Both the position numbers and the translations under genes were made by a program. DNA of 64,000 bases. Source: an uncultured Elusimicrobia bacterium (GTDB lineage: Bacteria; Elusimicrobiota; Elusimicrobia; Elusimicrobiales; UBA9959). Where the stretch lies: contig CAISZM010000030.1 in assembly GCA_903889965.1 (NCBI GenBank), positions 1-64,000 on the forward strand, written 5' to 3'. This document shows, one piece after another, positions 46,039-54,528 of the stretch. The notes under the pieces were generated by a model. That model was given only the letters and a program-made list of their open reading frames with translations. It ran no database searches and was not told the DNA's origin. The stretch's first letter is position 1, and each line of letters begins with the position of its first letter.

Positions 46039-46977
46039 TTATTTAGCCATCCGGCAGATGTCGCCCGATTTGGCCGAAGCGCCTGACTTGTCGAACCGCG
46101 CCGCTGCGCAGTCTCCGGCGTCGCCGCACGGGCCGGTAACTTCGGCGCGGCCGAGATAATTCTCCACATGTCCTATTACCAGGTTGGAGCGCGGATCGCG
46201 TATCTCGGAGCCCTGGGCGTAACAGTCAAGCTTCATGCCGGCCATAACCCCGGACTCCTGCCCGGCGTTCAGGTATATCTGGCCGGGGGCCGGGGCGGCC
46301 GCTATCATGCAGGACCAGGCCTTTTTGTTGAGCTGGCTCGAAATATTTGTCACAAATTGCACCAGCGCGGCGCGCAGCGCCTCTCCCTCGAGAGTCTCGT
46401 CGTAACCGCCTTTCGTACCCATGCCGAGGAAGGACCCCTTGGTGGATTTCGCCTCACCCTTGCCGGAATCAGCAAGTATGATACGGCCGTCCTGCACGTC
46501 GATCAGCCTTATGTCGACCGTTACGTCGGCCACCTGCCGCTTGGACTGCGTCAGCAGGTAATCGGAGCCCTCTTTCTTTACGCCGAACTGTGAAATGGAC
46601 CCCACCACTATGGCCTCGAGGCCCAGCAGCTGCCCCATCTTGGCGGCGGTCTGGGGATCGGTCATCCCCTGGCCCTGGAGCTTCTGCTCCTCCATTATCT
46701 TGTTGATACGGTCGCGCTCGACCACTATGAATTTACCGGACTTGACCAGCTCGGTGACCAGTATGTCCGAGGCGGCTCCCCCCAGACGTCCCTGCCCGTA
46801 AGCCGACTTGTTTTCGAACTCGACCACGCCTATGCGCCGTTTAGGGCCGGTATATTTCGAATTCACCTGTTCCGTCTCGTTTACGCTCAGCGCCTGCTGG
46901 GTCTTGACCGACTTTGAAGGGGCGCAGGCCGCCATGAAGACCGCCGCCGCTGCAACCAGAAGTTTTTTACCGTTCAT
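46039..46977 (-). CDS. CsgG/HfaB-family lipoprotein
   Basis: RRIGVVEFENKSAYGQGRLGGAASDILVTELVKSGKFIVVERDRINKIMEEQKLQGQGMTDPQTAAKMGQLLGLEAIVVGSISQF; lipobox AAC. Confidence 0.9.
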   Translation of the reverse strand: MNGKKLLVAAAAVFMAACAPSKSVKTQQALSVNETEQVNSKYTGPKRRIGVVEFENKSAYGQGRLGGAASDILVTELVKSGKFIVVERDRINKIMEEQKLQGQGMTDPQTAAKMGQLLGLEAIVVGSISQFGVKKEGSDYLLTQSKRQVADVTVDIRLIDVQDGRIILADSGKGEAKSTKGSFLGMGTKGGYDETLEGEALRAALVQFVTNISSQLNKKAWSCMIAAAPAPGQIYLNAGQESGVMAGMKLDCYAQGSEIRDPRSNLVIGHVENYLGRAEVTGPCGDAGDCAAARFDKSGASAKSGDICRMAK

Positions 46978-47010
46978 TTTTTTACCTCCGTCCGAATTAT
47001 GTCAGCTCAC

Positions 47011-47622
47011 TTACCTGCGCGGCAGGCCGTCCAGGGCCTGCCAGGCGGCCTTTTCCGCCTCACGCTTCAAAGGCACCTTCATCATATTGTCCGCCAGTTT
47101 GATTGCCATCTGCTCCACGAAAGCCCTGGTCGCTTCATCCCGGTCCAGGTACACCTTGATATCCTTGCCTGAACCTGAACCTTCGTAAAGGGTTTCCCCG
47201 GTGGCGGCCGAGACCAGCTTTACTTTCAGGGCCGCGGACTTGCGTATGACGAAACCGAGGTTCTGGAAATTAAAATCCTCCACTTCGCCGTAACAGAGCA
47301 GGTCGACGCCCAGCGCCGCGCCGATGTCCTTCGGCTTCACTCCTCCGGTCTGCCCGCCTTCCGAGATCCCCAAAGCTGAAAGTTTTGTATCAACATCAGC
47401 CGCCGGCAGGGGCGCGTATCCCCTTAAGGATAAATTTTCTGCCGCCAGCTTGCGCATTACGTCCGGCGCGCTTATATCCACCGCCTGGCTGTCAAAGGGC
47501 AGTACGGCCACTCTTAAGTCCGCGGCGGCGCTTAACGCGGGCGACACGAGATAGGCCGGTTTGACCGCGCAGGCGCAGGCCGCCGTCAGCAGCGCCATAG
47601 GTATCAGGAGACTGCGCGCCAT
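47011..47622 (-). CDS. GNA1162/DUF799-like lipoprotein
   Basis: Lipobox LTAAC; LRVAVLPFDSQAVDISAPDVMRKLAAENLSLRGYAPLP..DIGAALGVDLLCYGEVEDF; next to CsgG-like gene. Confidence 0.65.
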   Translation of the reverse strand: MARSLLIPMALLTAACACAVKPAYLVSPALSAAADLRVAVLPFDSQAVDISAPDVMRKLAAENLSLRGYAPLPAADVDTKLSALGISEGGQTGGVKPKDIGAALGVDLLCYGEVEDFNFQNLGFVIRKSAALKVKLVSAATGETLYEGSGSGKDIKVYLDRDEATRAFVEQMAIKLADNMMKVPLKREAEKAAWQALDGLPRR

Positions 47623-47625
47623 GGC

Positions 47626-48726
47626 TTACCTGGCCAGCGAAAATGAGACTTCCCGGGCGGCTACCCCGTCCAACTGAAGTCCAAGCGAGTCTCCCTTCAG
47701 CACGAAGCTCGCGAACTCCTGGGGGTCCGGCCGGAGCGGTATCACGTCGAAATACGCCGTACCGTCCGAGTAACTGTCCAGGCGCAGGCCCTTCAGGCCG
47801 AAACCCAGCAGTTCCGCCTTGAGTTTTTCCAGGGTTTCAAATCCGTCCAGCCCGGCTACCTTGAGCCGTATCAGGGACTCCGGTTTCACCAGCCTGTCCG
47901 TCTTGACCGCGGTTTCATGCGCAAGCAGCTCGCCCGCGGCCGCCAGCGCTTTTTCAAAAGAGGCGGTCTCGGAAGAATCCACGGCATTAGCCTGGCTGGA
48001 GAGATTAAAAAGCAGTTTCCCGGATTTGGCGTCATAAACCCTGACGGAGGCTTCCGCCGTGGAAGGGTAAAAACCGGTGCTGAGGCCGGAGCCGGAGGCG
48101 CTGGCGGAAGCGGAGGCGGAAAACAACAGGTCCGCGCCGGAGGAGGCGGCCGCGCTCAACAGCAGGTTATCCGGCCCAGCCGGCACAGCTCCCGCGCGCG
48201 TGAACGGGAAATCCTTTATGCTGAGGACAGAACGTTTAACAAAAGCTTCCTTGAAGGCCTTAAGAAAGGCGGGAGCCGGAGCACCGCGGAACGCCAGGGC
48301 GGCCGAAGTGCCGGCTGCCGAGGGCCTGGGAAGGGAGCCACGGAGGTCTGCCGCCACCCTGGAATGATAAACCCACACTTTTTCCCTTACACGGTATGAG
48401 TCGCCGTCCCGGCTTTCATAAATTATCTTATGCTTCGCCACGTAAAGGCCGGCGTTGGCGAGCAGGCCGCTGTCCAGACGGGAATAATTTTCGGCCATGG
48501 AGGTCTCATCCATAAAAAGCTCCGCTACCCTGCGCACGGCCGCCTTCTCGGCTTCCATGCCTGCGCGCTCCCTTGATATAGCAAGGTCCCTGGAGTCGAA
48601 ATCGGCAGAGCCTTCCGCCGTCACCGCCTCCGGGGACGCCTTGTCCGGGTTAAGCGAGGGCGCGTGGGCGCAGGCGCCCAGCGCCGCCAGAGCGGCCGAT
48701 AGTATCATTGCAGTGTATATTTTCAT
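47626..48726 (-). CDS. LPP20-like/LPS-associated-type lipoprotein (hypothetical)
   Basis: Lipobox LGAC; EGSADFDSRDLAISRERAGMEAEKAAVRRVAELF resembles LPP20-type N-termini. Confidence 0.5.
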   Translation of the reverse strand: MKIYTAMILSAALAALGACAHAPSLNPDKASPEAVTAEGSADFDSRDLAISRERAGMEAEKAAVRRVAELFMDETSMAENYSRLDSGLLANAGLYVAKHKIIYESRDGDSYRVREKVWVYHSRVAADLRGSLPRPSAAGTSAALAFRGAPAPAFLKAFKEAFVKRSVLSIKDFPFTRAGAVPAGPDNLLLSAAASSGADLLFSASASASASGSGLSTGFYPSTAEASVRVYDAKSGKLLFNLSSQANAVDSSETASFEKALAAAGELLAHETAVKTDRLVKPESLIRLKVAGLDGFETLEKLKAELLGFGLKGLRLDSYSDGTAYFDVIPLRPDPQEFASFVLKGDSLGLQLDGVAAREVSFSLAR

Positions 48727-48760: not shown

Positions 48761-50683
48761 CTATTTTTTAAAAACCGGCAGGGCGAAGCAGAAGCGGGAA
48801 CCTTTCCCCGGCTTGGACTCGACCCAGATCTTGCCGCCGTGCTTCTCGACTACCGATTTTGAAATTGCAAGGCCGAGGCCGGTGCCGGGCACCTGGTTCG
48901 CGCTGGCCTTGCCGCGGTAAAACTTTTCAAAAACCATCTTCTGCTCTCCGGGAGGTATGCCCGGACCGTTATCCTCTACGCAGATCATCACGGCCTCGCC
49001 CTTATCCGTTCCCGACACGTTAACACTGGCGCCCTCGCCGGCGTATTTGATGGCGTTTATCAGCAGGTTCTCTATCACCTGCCCTATCCAGCGGGTGTCC
49101 GCCTGGACTACCGGCAGGCCCGTGCCGAGGGAGCTGGAGATGGAGATATTCTTTTCGCGCGCCTTTATCAGCATGGAGGAAACGGAACCGCGCACCAGCT
49201 CCACCAGGTCAACCTTTTCGAACTCCATTTCCACCTTGCCGTTGAGGCGGGACAGGTCGAGCAGGTTCGAGATCAGGTGCGTAAGGCGGTTGACCGACTG
49301 GTCCACCACCGTGAGAAAATTCAGCTGCTGCTCGTTAAGCGGCCCGACTTCTCCGCTGAGTATAACGGAGACGAACCCCTTTATGGTCGTCAGCGGGGTC
49401 TTCAGCTCGTGGCTGACGGTGGAAAGGAACTCGTCTTTCAGCTTATTCAGCTGCGCCAGTTCCTGCGCGGTCCGGGAAAGGTTATCGTAAAGCGTGACCA
49501 TCTCTATGATAATGGCAAGCTCGTCGGCGATTATGGTCAGGAATTCCAGCTGGTCGGCGGTGAAGAAGTCCTTGCGGCGGCTGCCCACGCGCATCACGCC
49601 TATGATGCGTTCGTGCAGGGAGATGGGAACTATCATCAGGGAATGTATCTCCCAGAGTTTTGCGTAATGGGTCAGCACGTCCGGGTCGTTCTGTGCGTCC
49701 GCGGTGATAAAGGGTTTCCGGCTGAGGAAGGTGCGCACGGAGGCGGAGGAGTGGTTGCTGACGGGTATGCTGTAAAGCATCCGTTCGGATTCCGCTATGC
49801 CGTAAGAGCCGGGGCTGACCACGAGCTCGCCCTTGGCCTCGTCGAAAAGCAGGCAGGCGACCACGTCCGCCTCCACCATCTTGGCTACGATATTCAGGAT
49901 AGCCGCGCAGCCGCCCTGCGCGTCGGCGGGGCCGGTCACTTTGGTCACCACTTCGTAAAGGGCCTTGCGCTCCCGGGCCCGCTGTATCAGCCGGGTACCG
50001 GCAACGTCAAGTTCCTTAACCACGGCGCTGACCTCGTTTTTGAGGTGGTCGGTTTCTTTTTTAAGCGAGAAGACCTTGTCCGAGACCCTGGAGATAGCCG
50101 TCAGCTGCGAGGCCACGAAACGCAGGTAAGGCTGCGCCGCCTCGAAGGAGGCCGGGACGGCCGCCCCGAAAAGTATCAGGCGTTCCTCGCCGCCGCCGGC
50201 CGGCCGGAACGGGCAGAGCAGCGCGGACTTTATATCGAACACTGAAAACAGCTCCTCCATCTCGCGGTAATCGCCGGTCTTTACGTCGTCAAAACGCAGG
50301 ATCTCGCCGTCGGCCGCGCTGCGGTCGAAAGCGCTCCACTTGTAGGAGGCGATGAGCTTGGGCTCGACCTTGAAATGCTTCAGGTAGTTCACAAGGCGCC
50401 ACTGCCCCAGGCCTTTTTCAAAGACGAGCATCGAGCTGTCCGGGAAGGCCTTGTGAAGTTTTATCAGGTAGTAGTTGGTAATATCGCCGTAATGTTCCGG
50501 CTGCTCCGGCGCATAGGCGCGCTCCATCGTTTCCCGCGTAAAAAGCGTAAAATCGGACAGGGTTTTGCGCGATAAGTTGAGGCCGCGCTCCATGGGCAGG
50601 ACATACTTGAACTTCAGGAACCAGTAGGCGCCAAAGGCTCCCGCCGTCCCGATCACGCCCGCAGCGATCAGCTCGTTGAACAT
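48761..50683 (-). CDS. GAF-domain sensor histidine kinase with N-terminal membrane anchor
   Basis: H-box EFLSTVSHELKTPLTTIKGF, N-box NLLINAIKYAGEG, G boxes EDNGPGIPPGE and GTGLGLAISKSVVEKHGG; GAF-like central region. Confidence 0.93.
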   Translation of the reverse strand: MFNELIAAGVIGTAGAFGAYWFLKFKYVLPMERGLNLSRKTLSDFTLFTRETMERAYAPEQPEHYGDITNYYLIKLHKAFPDSSMLVFEKGLGQWRLVNYLKHFKVEPKLIASYKWSAFDRSAADGEILRFDDVKTGDYREMEELFSVFDIKSALLCPFRPAGGGEERLILFGAAVPASFEAAQPYLRFVASQLTAISRVSDKVFSLKKETDHLKNEVSAVVKELDVAGTRLIQRARERKALYEVVTKVTGPADAQGGCAAILNIVAKMVEADVVACLLFDEAKGELVVSPGSYGIAESERMLYSIPVSNHSSASVRTFLSRKPFITADAQNDPDVLTHYAKLWEIHSLMIVPISLHERIIGVMRVGSRRKDFFTADQLEFLTIIADELAIIIEMVTLYDNLSRTAQELAQLNKLKDEFLSTVSHELKTPLTTIKGFVSVILSGEVGPLNEQQLNFLTVVDQSVNRLTHLISNLLDLSRLNGKVEMEFEKVDLVELVRGSVSSMLIKAREKNISISSSLGTGLPVVQADTRWIGQVIENLLINAIKYAGEGASVNVSGTDKGEAVMICVEDNGPGIPPGEQKMVFEKFYRGKASANQVPGTGLGLAISKSVVEKHGGKIWVESKPGKGSRFCFALPVFKK

Positions 50684-50686
50684 TCG

Positions 50687-52438
50687 TTACACCAGGTCCA
50701 TGAGTATCTTCGTATAAACTGATTTTGACTTCAGTTTGTCAAGCGGAAGCCAGGCGCCCTTAACCAGGAAACTGTCCAGTATCTTGAAGGATATGTGCCG
50801 GAATTCGGCGTCCTGCGCGCCAAGCGCGGAGGTGGGATGGGGCCCCAGTATTATCACGCCGTTCACCCCCCGTTCGGCGGCGTAGTTGCCTATCTTGAAC
50901 GGGATGCCGTAAAGCTCGTCGGAGTTGTATTCTTCTATGAAGACCTGGCTCCACTCTGTGTTGAGCCCCAGCTCCTTGGCGCGTTCATGCAGGCTGAACA
51001 GGGCGAATTCCGCTTCACGGCGCATGCCGCGCGGGTGGAAGACCCCCCATTTGAACCAGGCATCCTTGGCGGAAGGCTGCCAGGAGGAGGCATGCCTCAT
51101 ATCCTCCTCCGTCACGGGGCCGGCGGGTACAGGCGCTTCGCCAAGGCCGAGCAGCGTATCAAGAAGCTCGGCGTGCGTGGCGCTGTTAAGCTGGTTGACC
51201 AGGAACTTCTCCAGCTTCTTCATGTTTTCCAGGGTTTTTATGGCCTCGCCGAAAGGCACCTGTTTCTTCACGAAGATGGAGTTAAGTTCGTCTTCGGAGA
51301 GCCTGGCGTCCATACCCTGCAGCAGCTGGTTCAGTATGGCCCGGTAAGACTGCGCGCCCGGCATTTTAAGGTCCACCATCCACCCCTGGGTGAACTGGAA
51401 GCCGACCGAGTCCTCAAGGCCCGACAGCGACTTGGGCGGGAATACCGTGGTGACGACTATCTGCTTGTTCTGCGCCACGAAATTATTGAGCCACTTGGAA
51501 ATATATTTCTTGTTCGCCTCCGAAATAATAAGCAGGTGCACGTCGTCTATTATAAGCACTTTCACCTTTGCGAACATTTCCTCCAGGCGGGCAATGCCTC
51601 CCTCTTTTATGGCGACCTCTACGCCCTTGGAAAGTTTTATCCCGTCCGTGAGGAAGATATCGCTCTGCCCTATGGAGGCCGAGAGGCCGTAGGAAATGGC
51701 GTTAACAAAATGGGTCTTGCCAGAGCCGGGAGGCCCGAAAAGCATCAGCGGGTTATATATGACGCCGGGATTTTCCACCACGGCCATGGCGGCCGCGTGG
51801 GCGAAGCGGTTGTGGGAACCGGCCACGAGGGTCTGGAAACTATAAGTCGGGATGAGAGGCAGTTCCATCGACCAGCGCGTCTTGCTCCGCGTGGAGGCGG
51901 AGACCGCGGCGATGGCCGGGGCTGCCGCAGCCGCCGGCTTGGGTTCGTCGTGCCTGGTGCGCGCGGAAATGGACGGCACGCTCATGCCGGACTGCGAGGA
52001 GGACTGGAAAACAGGGGGGATCTGCCGGGGGGCGGGCTCGGGTGCTGGAGCTGGCTGCGGCATTGCCGGTCCGGGCGCCGGGGCCGGCGCAGGCCCGGGC
52101 CCGGTTTGCGGCGCCGGGGCGGCATGGGGTTCAATATTTATCTTCGGCTTCGGTATATCGAACGGGGCGAACTCGTCGACGGGTGACTCCTCCGGTACGG
52201 CGGCAAGACCGCTGAGCTCAGCGGTAACGGCCTTCAGTTTGACCATCGTGTCCATATCCAGTTTGGACAGGTAGATGACGAAATCGAAATCCCCGGAAGT
52301 TTTTTCCGGCCGCGAGCAAACGCTGCCCAGCTTCTTCACTATCATGAAGATGTTCTTCATTTCCCCTTTTATAAGCAGCTTGTGGCGGCCGGGGTTTTTC
52401 TCGCTGGGGGCGGGGGAGACTTCCCACTTTTTTAGCAT
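50687..52438 (-). CDS. DnaA-family AAA+ ATPase domain protein with novel N- and C-terminal regions
   Basis: YSFQTLVAGSHNRFAHAAAMAVVENPGVIYNPLMLFGPPGSGKTHFVNAI aligns by eye with DnaA domain III; Walker B VLIIDDVHLL; KQIVVTTVFPPKSLSGLED. Pro/Ala-rich linker and about 130-aa non-DnaA C-terminus. Confidence 0.85.
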   Translation of the reverse strand: MLKKWEVSPAPSEKNPGRHKLLIKGEMKNIFMIVKKLGSVCSRPEKTSGDFDFVIYLSKLDMDTMVKLKAVTAELSGLAAVPEESPVDEFAPFDIPKPKINIEPHAAPAPQTGPGPAPAPAPGPAMPQPAPAPEPAPRQIPPVFQSSSQSGMSVPSISARTRHDEPKPAAAAAPAIAAVSASTRSKTRWSMELPLIPTYSFQTLVAGSHNRFAHAAAMAVVENPGVIYNPLMLFGPPGSGKTHFVNAISYGLSASIGQSDIFLTDGIKLSKGVEVAIKEGGIARLEEMFAKVKVLIIDDVHLLIISEANKKYISKWLNNFVAQNKQIVVTTVFPPKSLSGLEDSVGFQFTQGWMVDLKMPGAQSYRAILNQLLQGMDARLSEDELNSIFVKKQVPFGEAIKTLENMKKLEKFLVNQLNSATHAELLDTLLGLGEAPVPAGPVTEEDMRHASSWQPSAKDAWFKWGVFHPRGMRREAEFALFSLHERAKELGLNTEWSQVFIEEYNSDELYGIPFKIGNYAAERGVNGVIILGPHPTSALGAQDAEFRHISFKILDSFLVKGAWLPLDKLKSKSVYTKILMDLV

Positions 52439-52443
52439 AATGT

Positions 52444-54528
52444 TTAGCGCAGCAGAAGGTCAGCCACAAGGTCAAGCGCCGCCGAATGGCTGAATGACTG
52501 GAGATCATAGTGCCTGAAAAAACCGCCGGAAGACGAAATGACGTTTTCCACCTCGTACACCTTTTCCTGCGGCACGTCGCCCAGGCACACCACGCCCACC
52601 GCGCCCGAGTCGGTCGCCAGCTGATGCACGTAGTTGGCATTTATTTCAAGCTCGCACTCCTTGAGTATCGCGCGCTTGAGGAACATGGGCTTGGAAACGG
52701 ATTTTAGACAAATTGCGTCAAGCTCGGCCAACACGGTGGCGCAAAAGGCCTTATCGTCAGGCGCATAGAGGAACATTACAGGCCTGACGCGCTCCGGAGG
52801 TATACCCTCGGGAACAGGCTTCCTGCCCAGGTCTTCAAGGTCCCCGGCCTTTAAATTAGAAACCGGCGACGGCGCGGCGCCAGGCGTATAAATAACGGTC
52901 TTATCTTCATGGGCCGGTCCGGGCACGGCATCCGGCGGCGGGACCGCAAGCAGTTCATCACCGGAGGGACCGTGCTGGGCGTCGCCGCCCTGTCCGGGGA
53001 CGGGAACGGGGGACGCATCCGCCGGTTTTGAAGGCAGATTTCCATCAGCCCGGGGCGCTGACATCGGGCTTACGCTCAACTCCACGCCGGGAGCGGGCCA
53101 CGCCGGGGATATTTCTCCCGCGGCCGGATTCAACCCGCTTTCGGGCACCGGGCCAGGAACGGCCCCGCCGGAATCGGGCTTTATATTTTCTTCTATAGGT
53201 TCTTTATCGGGCTTTTTGTCCATAGTTTCCCCCTCCGGCTCTGCCGCTTTTATCATCCTGGAAAAATCCGCAACCTCTTCCGCGGTAGGCTCAGCAGTCC
53301 CCCGGGCCGCGGGGGAGTCCTCAACTGGCTCAGGTACCGGTGAAAGTTCCCCGTCCGGCTCCCCGCTTGAGAGCTGCATAAGATCATCTATATCCGGCAC
53401 TCCGAAATCGTGCGTAACGGCAAAAACGGGTTCAGGCCGCGGAGCGGGCGCGCCGGCCAGGGGCAGCAGAGCGGCTTCAGGCTCATTTTCCGGAGCCAAG
53501 ACGGGTCCTGCGGCCGGAGGCTCGGGCTTGGCGGGTGCGGCGCTTTCGTCTTGAGAAGGCGACAGGAGATCCTTGTCGCAATTAAATCCGGGGATGGCCG
53601 CGCCGGCCTGCGGCAACTGTGCTTCAGGCCCGCTTTCCGGAGCGGCCACAGGCCCGGAGGCGGCGGTTTCGGGAGCGATACCTTCGGGCCGGGCGGGCGG
53701 GATATCCGTTCCATCTCCGAATCCTGGTATCGATTCGCCGGCCTGCGGCAGCAGGGCTGCTTCAGGCTGATTGTCCGGGGCTGGAACTAAACCGCCGGTC
53801 TGAGTCTCGGGCTCGGAAGGTATTGCGCCTTCGACAGGGGCGGGAGGCGTGAGATCCGCGCCGCCGTTAAGTCCGGGGAAAGCAGCTTCGTCCTGCGGTA
53901 AAGCGAATTCAGGCGCATTTTCCGGAGCGGCGGAGGACCCGGCGTCCGGCGGCCCGGGCTCGGGAGGTGTTGCGCTTTCGGCCGGAGAAGGCGGCGGAAG
54001 ATCCGCACCGGAATTTAATTCGGTCATGACGGCTTCAGGCGTCTTTGCCGGAGCAGGATCGGGCCTGGGAACTGAAACGGTTTCCGCCTTTGGGAACGGG
54101 AGCCGCTCCCTCGGAGCCGGCGGTTCAAGCGGGGCGCCGGAAAGCTTGGACAGGCCGGACGTTTGAAGTTTCCTCTCGGGCTCCGCCTCCCCGAACATAA
54201 AATCGCCAAGACTCTGCGGAACAAGTTCTCCGCGCACAGGCTCCACCGGGGTTTCAGGGACCGGCGGGGGCTCGGGAACCGCGGCGTCAGCCGCCGCTTC
54301 AGGGGCGGCCGGAGCAGGGGGAGCGGCCGCGCGCACGGGCTGTTCCACGGAAAGGACAGGGGGTTCCGGCTTGCGGAACTCCATCGGCTTTATTTCCGGC
54401 ATACGTATGCCTTCCAGGATCGACGGCATCCTGTTAAGAAGACCGTTCAGATCGGAAAGTATATCTTCGATGGATTCTTTTTTTCTGCCGTCTTTATGAT
54501 CCATAAAAAAGTCAACCCGGAAGGCCAC
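52444..54528 (-). CDS. Large Pro/Glu/Ala-rich protein with N-terminal helix, tandem repeats and C-terminal globular domain
   Basis: 694 aa ORF in operon with the DnaA-like gene (5-nt gap); N-term KESIEDILSDLNGLLNRMPSILEGI; C-term VRPVMFLYAPDDKAFCATVLAELDAI... Confidence 0.75.
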   Translation of the reverse strand: MAFRVDFFMDHKDGRKKESIEDILSDLNGLLNRMPSILEGIRMPEIKPMEFRKPEPPVLSVEQPVRAAAPPAPAAPEAAADAAVPEPPPVPETPVEPVRGELVPQSLGDFMFGEAEPERKLQTSGLSKLSGAPLEPPAPRERLPFPKAETVSVPRPDPAPAKTPEAVMTELNSGADLPPPSPAESATPPEPGPPDAGSSAAPENAPEFALPQDEAAFPGLNGGADLTPPAPVEGAIPSEPETQTGGLVPAPDNQPEAALLPQAGESIPGFGDGTDIPPARPEGIAPETAASGPVAAPESGPEAQLPQAGAAIPGFNCDKDLLSPSQDESAAPAKPEPPAAGPVLAPENEPEAALLPLAGAPAPRPEPVFAVTHDFGVPDIDDLMQLSSGEPDGELSPVPEPVEDSPAARGTAEPTAEEVADFSRMIKAAEPEGETMDKKPDKEPIEENIKPDSGGAVPGPVPESGLNPAAGEISPAWPAPGVELSVSPMSAPRADGNLPSKPADASPVPVPGQGGDAQHGPSGDELLAVPPPDAVPGPAHEDKTVIYTPGAAPSPVSNLKAGDLEDLGRKPVPEGIPPERVRPVMFLYAPDDKAFCATVLAELDAICLKSVSKPMFLKRAILKECELEINANYVHQLATDSGAVGVVCLGDVPQEKVYEVENVISSSGGFFRHYDLQSFSHSAALDLVADLLLR
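53446..54027 (-). repeat. Four degenerate ~45-50 aa tandem repeats inside the Pro-rich protein
   Basis: Units start LNSGADLPPPSP, PGLNGGADLTPPAP, PGFGDGTDIPPARP, PGFNCDKDLLSPSQ, each with a later (A)APEN/PAPDN/AAPES/LAPEN-xxPEA block. Confidence 0.7.

What the first reader, a model, noticed from the sequence alone, without database searches (positions are those of the whole stretch)
50687..52438. DnaA paralogue that appears to have lost the arginine finger, sensor-II arginine and domain IV
Residues ~195-410 align by eye with DnaA domain III: Walker A GPPGSGKTH (nt 51713-51736), Walker B LIIDDVHLL, KQIVVTTVFPPKSLSGLED. The E. coli DnaA segment EDRLKSRFGWGL corresponds here to EDSVGFQFTQGW, so both box-VII arginines are replaced. 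The sensor-II region (NVRELEGAL) corresponds to PFGEAIKTL with no arginine. There is no domain IV DnaA-box-binding signature; residues ~445-583 form an unrelated region. Inference: it probably binds nucleotide but does not form DnaA-type ATP-dependent filaments or bind DnaA boxes. A separate true dnaA should exist elsewhere in the genome.
Basis: partly seen in the sequence, partly recalled or inferred. Interest (0 to 1): 0.8.

Follow-up and report, generated by a model that had tools for sequence, protein, structure and literature searches.

The report
DnaA relative rebuilt without DNA-binding parts
The gene encodes a descendant of the bacterial replication initiator DnaA that has lost the parts needed to bind DNA and, in this lineage, to use ATP as DnaA does; it is kept under strong selection in most Elusimicrobiota families sampled, usually beside a histidine kinase and/or a protein sharing its tail domain, so it probably does a non-replication job, perhaps signalling.

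Summary
Window 50687-52438 encodes a 583-aa protein with a DnaA domain III (Pfam Bac_DnaA 8e-30). Walker A and B are intact. The positions of sensor-I Asp, both box-VII Arg and sensor-II Arg are V, S, Q and G. Domain IV is absent and a true dnaA lies on another contig. No nearby shifted arginine is conserved.

New here: it belongs to a widespread Elusimicrobiota family (missing from one large family of the phylum) that forms a single clade apart from true DnaA (100/100). Outgroup copies keep a canonical ATPase (EDRLRSRFEWGL, NIRELEG) yet already lack domain IV and H/B-motif residues K243 and R245; the ATPase losses came later, in one branch. The C-terminus is a conserved Rossmann-like domain, shared with the gene immediately upstream. 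That gene and a downstream GAF histidine kinase flank nearly every copy in the window's own family. dN/dS is 0.04-0.10.

Most likely: a former initiator ATPase reused as a nucleotide-bound protein scaffold or switch in a signalling module. That function is inference; the anatomy, ancestry and gene order are shown.

The parts
50687..52438 (-). DnaA-derived AAA+ paralogue, 583 aa
   Evidence: ORF; Bac_DnaA 8.4e-30; orthologues in all genera searched
52193..52438 (-). N-terminal domain, residues 1-82, no Pfam match, predicted beta-beta-alpha-beta-alpha
51869..52192 (-). Pro/Ala-rich linker, residues 83-190, predicted disordered (pLDDT mostly 25-41)
51143..51868 (-). DnaA-type AAA+ domain III with lid, residues about 191-432
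51710..51736 (-). Walker A GPPGSGKTH, residues 235-243
51530..51556 (-). Walker B LIIDDVHLL, residues 295-303
51380..51418 (-). Box VII LEDSVGFQFTQGW, residues 341-353; S344 and Q348 stand at R281 and R285 (Arg finger)
51227..51256 (-). Sensor II region PFGEAIKTLE, residues 395-404; G397 stands at R334
50690..51085 (-). C-terminal Rossmann-like domain, residues 452-583, in place of domain IV
   Evidence: AF2 pLDDT 89.9, pTM 0.85; conserved across the phylum
52444..54528 (-). Upstream partner protein, 694 aa, no Pfam match; long Pro-rich linker
   Evidence: upstream in 27/28 loci of the window's family
54436..54474 (-). Conserved helix motif SIEDILSDLNGLL near the N-terminus of the partner
   Evidence: seen in partners of other families
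52447..52842 (-). C-terminal domain of the partner, homologous to the paralogue's CTD
   Evidence: hhalign 97.8%, E 1.2e-12
48761..50683 (-). GAF-HisKA-HATPase histidine kinase, starts 3 bp after the paralogue's stop codon
   Evidence: Pfam; downstream in 41/43 loci of the window's family

Best explanation
Shown: the gene belongs to a single old clade of DnaA-derived AAA+ proteins in Elusimicrobiota that lack DnaA domain IV and the basic ssDNA-contact residues of the H/B motifs, and that carry their own N-terminal domain and a Rossmann-like C-terminal domain. Shown: in the window's lineage the residues DnaA uses to sense and hydrolyse ATP between subunits (sensor I Asp, box-VII Args, sensor II Arg) have also gone, while Walker A/B, the CTD and a new box-VII motif (GFQFTQGW) are strongly conserved. 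Inferred: it binds ATP or ADP as a structural ligand or slow switch, does not assemble DnaA-like nucleoprotein filaments, and does not act at oriC. Inferred: it is a protein-protein scaffold or switch in a signalling module with the upstream partner (which shares the CTD) and the downstream GAF histidine kinase; the long disordered linkers let NTD and CTD reach partners while the AAA+ core holds the complex. In outgroup lineages the intact Arg finger and sensors suggest that ATP-driven self-assembly is still used.
For: Single clade against all true DnaA, 100/100. One PF00308+PF08299 dnaA plus one PF00308-only paralogue in nearly all of 26 genomes checked. Residue table: outgroup 12/12 keep D269, R281, R285 and R334 but 0/12 keep K243 or R245; window family 0/44 keep R285. 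V211/R245 as ssDNA contacts and R285 as Arg finger of DnaA: PMC12122000, PMC11853086. CTD homologous across the phylum (hhalign 99.8%) and found once per genome in 78 of 120 genomes, in the paralogue, with two extra weak matches close by on the same contig. Partner CTD homology E 1.2e-12. Gene order in the window's family: partner upstream 27/28, HK downstream 41/43. Purifying selection, dN/dS 0.04-0.10.
Against: No functional data. The neighbours are not universal: the sister family f2 has neither partner nor HK beside the gene, and some outgroup lineages have only one of the two. Gene adjacency does not show physical interaction. Nucleotide binding is inferred from Walker motifs only. The CTD fold gives no function.
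Confidence: 0.5

Rival explanations
1. Hda-like regulator of replication: the paralogue meets true DnaA through AAA+ to AAA+ contacts and changes its nucleotide state or assembly.
For: Same overall idea as Hda (DnaA domain III without domain IV); outgroup copies keep the Arg finger that Hda uses; NCBIfam Hda model matches weakly, E 2e-7 against 2e-38 for DnaA, both far under the curated cut-offs.
Against: No beta-clamp-binding motif in the N-terminus of the window protein or of 20 relatives; no Arg finger in this lineage; the conserved neighbours are a kinase and a CTD twin, not replication genes.
Confidence: 0.15
2. Regulator or polar adaptor of the type IV pilus retraction machinery.
For: pilT lies directly upstream or one gene away in several outgroup, f7, f8 and f10 lineages; the window's genome has several pilT-family genes.
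Against: No pilT upstream in the window's family or f2; in the outgroup the pilT gene itself sits in a metabolic cluster, so the adjacency may be passive.
Confidence: 0.15
3. A DNA-binding or transcription role by new contacts, or a further unknown role of the N-terminal and C-terminal domains.
For: NTD and CTD have no assigned function.
Against: All known DnaA DNA contacts are missing; the CTD fold is Rossmann-like, not HTH.
Confidence: 0.15
4. Decaying duplicate of dnaA without function.
For: Loss of several catalytic residues.
Against: dN/dS 0.04-0.10, many invariant positions in 39 aligned sequences, presence across the phylum.
Confidence: 0.02

Closest known systems
DnaA (Pfam PF00308 + PF08299), chromosomal replication initiator
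   Same: Homologous AAA+ domain III; outgroup copies have all catalytic motifs
   Different: No domain IV, no H/B-motif basic residues, unrelated NTD and CTD; in this lineage no Arg finger, sensor I Asp or sensor II Arg; the genome has a separate true dnaA
Hda (DnaA regulatory inactivator)
   Same: DnaA domain III without domain IV
   Different: No clamp-binding motif found; long linkers, own NTD and CTD; no Arg finger in this lineage
DnaC/DnaI/IstB-type AAA+ proteins
   Same: Initiator-clade AAA+ fold, weak profile matches
   Different: Bac_DnaA scores far higher (E 8e-30 against 6e-10 for IstB); no CTD or NTD of this kind is known for them (own knowledge)

Membership tests
DnaA initiator | Bac_DnaA AAA+ domain III | tested here: met
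   PF00308 E 8.4e-30, over the curated cut-off
DnaA initiator | Domain IV, DnaA-box-binding HTH (PF08299) | tested here: not met
   Only one PF08299 match in the genome, in the other gene
DnaA initiator | Arg finger R285 and box VII R281 | tested here: not met
   Q348 and S344
DnaA initiator | Sensor II Arg R334 and sensor I Asp D269 | tested here: not met
   G397 and V332
DnaA initiator | Walker A and B motifs | tested here: met
   Walker A Lys and both Walker B Asp in 44/44 of the window family; Walker A Thr is Ser in 5. Nucleotide binding itself was not testable
DnaA initiator | ssDNA-contact residues V211, K243, R245 (H/B motifs) | tested here: not met
   V211 is E or D in 44/44, K243 is S, T or A in 44/44, R245 is mostly A, T or S
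DnaA initiator | ATP-dependent assembly and origin unwinding | not testable with these tools
   Needs biochemistry
Hda | Clamp-binding motif near the N-terminus | tested here: not met
   Pattern Q[LMI][STDPVA][LMI][PLF]: none in the window protein; in 3 of 20 relatives single matches far from the N-terminus, two of them part of the AAA+ core
Hda | Arg finger acting on DnaA | tested here: not met
   Absent in the window lineage, present in outgroup copies
Hda | Stimulates DnaA-ATP hydrolysis | not testable with these tools
   Needs biochemistry

The most novel reading that the evidence does not exclude
A DnaA-type initiator ATPase was duplicated early in (or before) Elusimicrobiota, shed its DNA-binding parts, gained a Rossmann-like CTD shared with a neighbouring protein, and became the core of a signalling module with a GAF histidine kinase; in one branch it then became a nucleotide-binding pseudo-ATPase with a fixed new box-VII motif. 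This would be a non-replicative use of the DnaA filament machine.
Probability: 0.4. Interest if true: 0.8.

Novelty: new variant of a known kind. Interest (0 to 1): 0.62.

Why it matters
DnaA is thought of as a DNA machine. Here natural variants show its ATPase features separated from DNA binding: outgroup copies have a complete ATPase core and no domain IV, and derived copies have neither. They offer ready-made material to ask which DnaA properties (nucleotide-driven assembly, Arg-finger coupling) can be reused away from DNA. The module is also a conserved feature of most of a poorly studied phylum, and no paper on it was found in the library searched.

Tried and rejected
Argonaute MID homology of the CTD: suggested by eye and by fold hits (7yfx TMq 0.68, rmsd 2.9), but lumazine synthases have equal or better E-values, the CTD profile has no significant PDB sequence match (best E 0.21, NadR), and no Piwi-family gene was found in 60 genomes of the phylum; treated as a generic Rossmann-like fold. 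BFVD search of the CTD: nothing under E 1e-3. Hda role: no clamp motif. The first comparison of partner CTD with paralogue CTD, using close relatives only, was negative or weak (0.1% and 43.6%); it became convincing only with a broader partner profile (97.8%). A shifted Arg finger or sensor II Arg in the window family: none conserved. Members outside the phylum were not tested: the one scan of genome contigs finds close relatives only, and the genome search was used within the phylum. Literature searches gave nothing on a DnaA paralogue of this kind.

Full report
OBSERVATION. The reading frame at 50687-52438 is on the minus strand. It encodes 583 residues: a small N-terminal domain (1-82), a Pro/Ala-rich linker predicted disordered (83-190), a DnaA domain III (about 191-432) and a C-terminal domain (452-583). 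PDB sequence and fold searches put the AAA+ part closest to DnaA domain III of B. subtilis and T. maritima. In an alignment with E. coli DnaA and the family, Walker A Lys and both Walker B Asp are kept, whereas sensor I D269, box-VII R281, Arg finger R285 and sensor II R334 are V332, S344, Q348 and G397. In 42 members of the window's family no Arg is conserved anywhere over residues 242-440, so a shifted finger is unlikely, although invariant lysines exist there. Domain IV is absent; the genome's only PF08299 match lies in a separate 451-aa dnaA on contig 3 that keeps RLISRF and SIRELEG.

FAMILY. A search of 248 Elusimicrobiota genomes finds relatives in most families. A profile of the C-terminal domain finds it in 78 of 120 genomes, once per genome apart from two weak extra matches; it is missing from the large family f12 and from the f4 and f5 genomes listed there. 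In 26 genomes tested, nearly all have one ~450-470 aa DnaA with both domains and one paralogue with PF00308 but no PF08299 (a full-length true dnaA was not found in assemblies G097 and G227). A maximum-likelihood tree of the AAA+ domain puts all 29 paralogues on one side of a branch and all 23 true DnaA, including E. coli and B. subtilis, on the other, support 100/100. Several derived copies sit on long branches, so placements inside the paralogue clade are less certain.

ORDER OF LOSSES. Outgroup copies (L094-L105) look like canonical ATPases: GVGLGKT, TSDRPP, EDRLRSRFEWGL, NIRELEG, with D269, R281, R285 and R334 in 12 of 12. Yet domain IV is missing and the H/B-motif positions are non-basic: K243 is S, V or A, R245 is S in 12 of 12; V211 is I, as in the true DnaA. 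V211 and R245 are the ssDNA contacts and R285 the Arg finger of E. coli DnaA (PMC12122000, PMC11853086). The derived branch (f10, f7/f8, f2, f1) shows erosion of sensor I, box VII and sensor II: f10 keeps FRFDWGL, f2 keeps R or K at the finger (FRLDSGW), f1 has Q at the finger in 39 of 44. Caveat: four early f1 members have an Arg in the sensor II column (DFRTV and similar).

SELECTION. dN/dS over the last 400 residues is 0.04-0.10 for four pairs of orthologues, and many positions are invariant in 39 aligned sequences. This is not a decaying duplicate.

C-TERMINAL DOMAIN AND NEIGHBOURS. AlphaFold2 models the CTD alone with pLDDT 89.9 and pTM 0.85 as an alternating beta/alpha Rossmann-like fold. 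Fold matches are weak and mixed: lumazine synthase and PIWI/Argonaute MID domains at E about 1e-3. It has no Pfam or PDB sequence relative. CTDs of the window family and the other lineages are homologous (hhalign 99.8%, E 8.7e-28). The gene immediately upstream (52444-54528, 694 aa, no Pfam match) ends in a homologous domain (97.8%, E 1.2e-12 with a broad profile) and begins with a conserved helix motif of the type IEDILSDLNxLL. In L103 the upstream protein also seems, by eye, to carry the N-terminal domain, so it looks like a twin of the paralogue without the AAA+ core. A GAF-HisKA-HATPase kinase starts 3 bp downstream of the stop codon. In the window's family the partner is upstream in 27 of 28 loci with room and the kinase downstream in 41 of 43; loci are drawn partly from the same genus. 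Kinase and/or partner also flank the gene in most other lineages, but f2 has neither. In several outgroup lineages pilT lies upstream, inside a nucleoside/pentose metabolism cluster. Since the wider surroundings differ between outgroup and window, the partner-paralogue-kinase set is the most likely functional unit.

MECHANISM. Shown: ancestry, losses, domain make-up, gene order, purifying selection. Inferred: nucleotide binding as a structural ligand or slow switch, no DnaA-type nucleoprotein filament, protein scaffold or switch in a signalling module with the partner and kinase. Rivals: Hda-like regulator (no clamp motif, no Arg finger here), pilus regulator (pilT adjacency outside f1/f2 only), new DNA-binding factor (known DNA contacts lost). 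Each has a direct test listed under next steps.

KNOWN OR NEW. It is a descendant of DnaA but fails the tests for being a DnaA initiator or an Hda. The library searched holds no paper found on a DnaA paralogue in Elusimicrobiota. Presence outside the phylum was not tested.

Noticed in passing
L072-L076 (family f2): In the sister family f2 the paralogue is expanded to about 870-1625 aa by very long low-complexity linkers and has no partner or kinase beside it.
   Followed up: partly
L081:8926-10272 (-); G017:C27:80352-81185; G021:C6:28775-30094: Some members of the window's genus carry shorter or more diverged extra copies of the paralogue; L081 has LEAAMGGIAGAGW in box VII and no partner or kinase nearby.
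   Followed up: no
G122:C73, C123, C33, C8; G138:C14, C30; G104:C14: Several 335-355 aa open frames match Bac_DnaA_C (domain IV) away from any DnaA AAA+ match; they may be transposase-like proteins with a DnaA-type HTH.
   Followed up: no
L093, L100, L101, L105: Outgroup and f10 paralogue genes sit in or near a cluster of sugar and nucleoside catabolism genes (tpiA, rpiB-like, deoC, transketolase halves, phosphopentomutase, nucleoside phosphorylases), with a microcompartment-shell-like gene in L093; identified by eye from the translations.
   Followed up: partly
window 46039-48726 (-): Downstream run of envelope proteins (CsgG, GNA1162-like lipoprotein, and a 366-aa protein without Pfam match); relatives of the 366-aa protein also lie downstream of the paralogue in f2 and in some f8 and f10 loci.
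   Followed up: partly
G045:C1:1066269-1066715; G038:C1:86947-87411: Two f2 genomes have a third, short (231-257 aa) Bac_DnaA match that could be an Hda- or DnaC-like protein.
   Followed up: no
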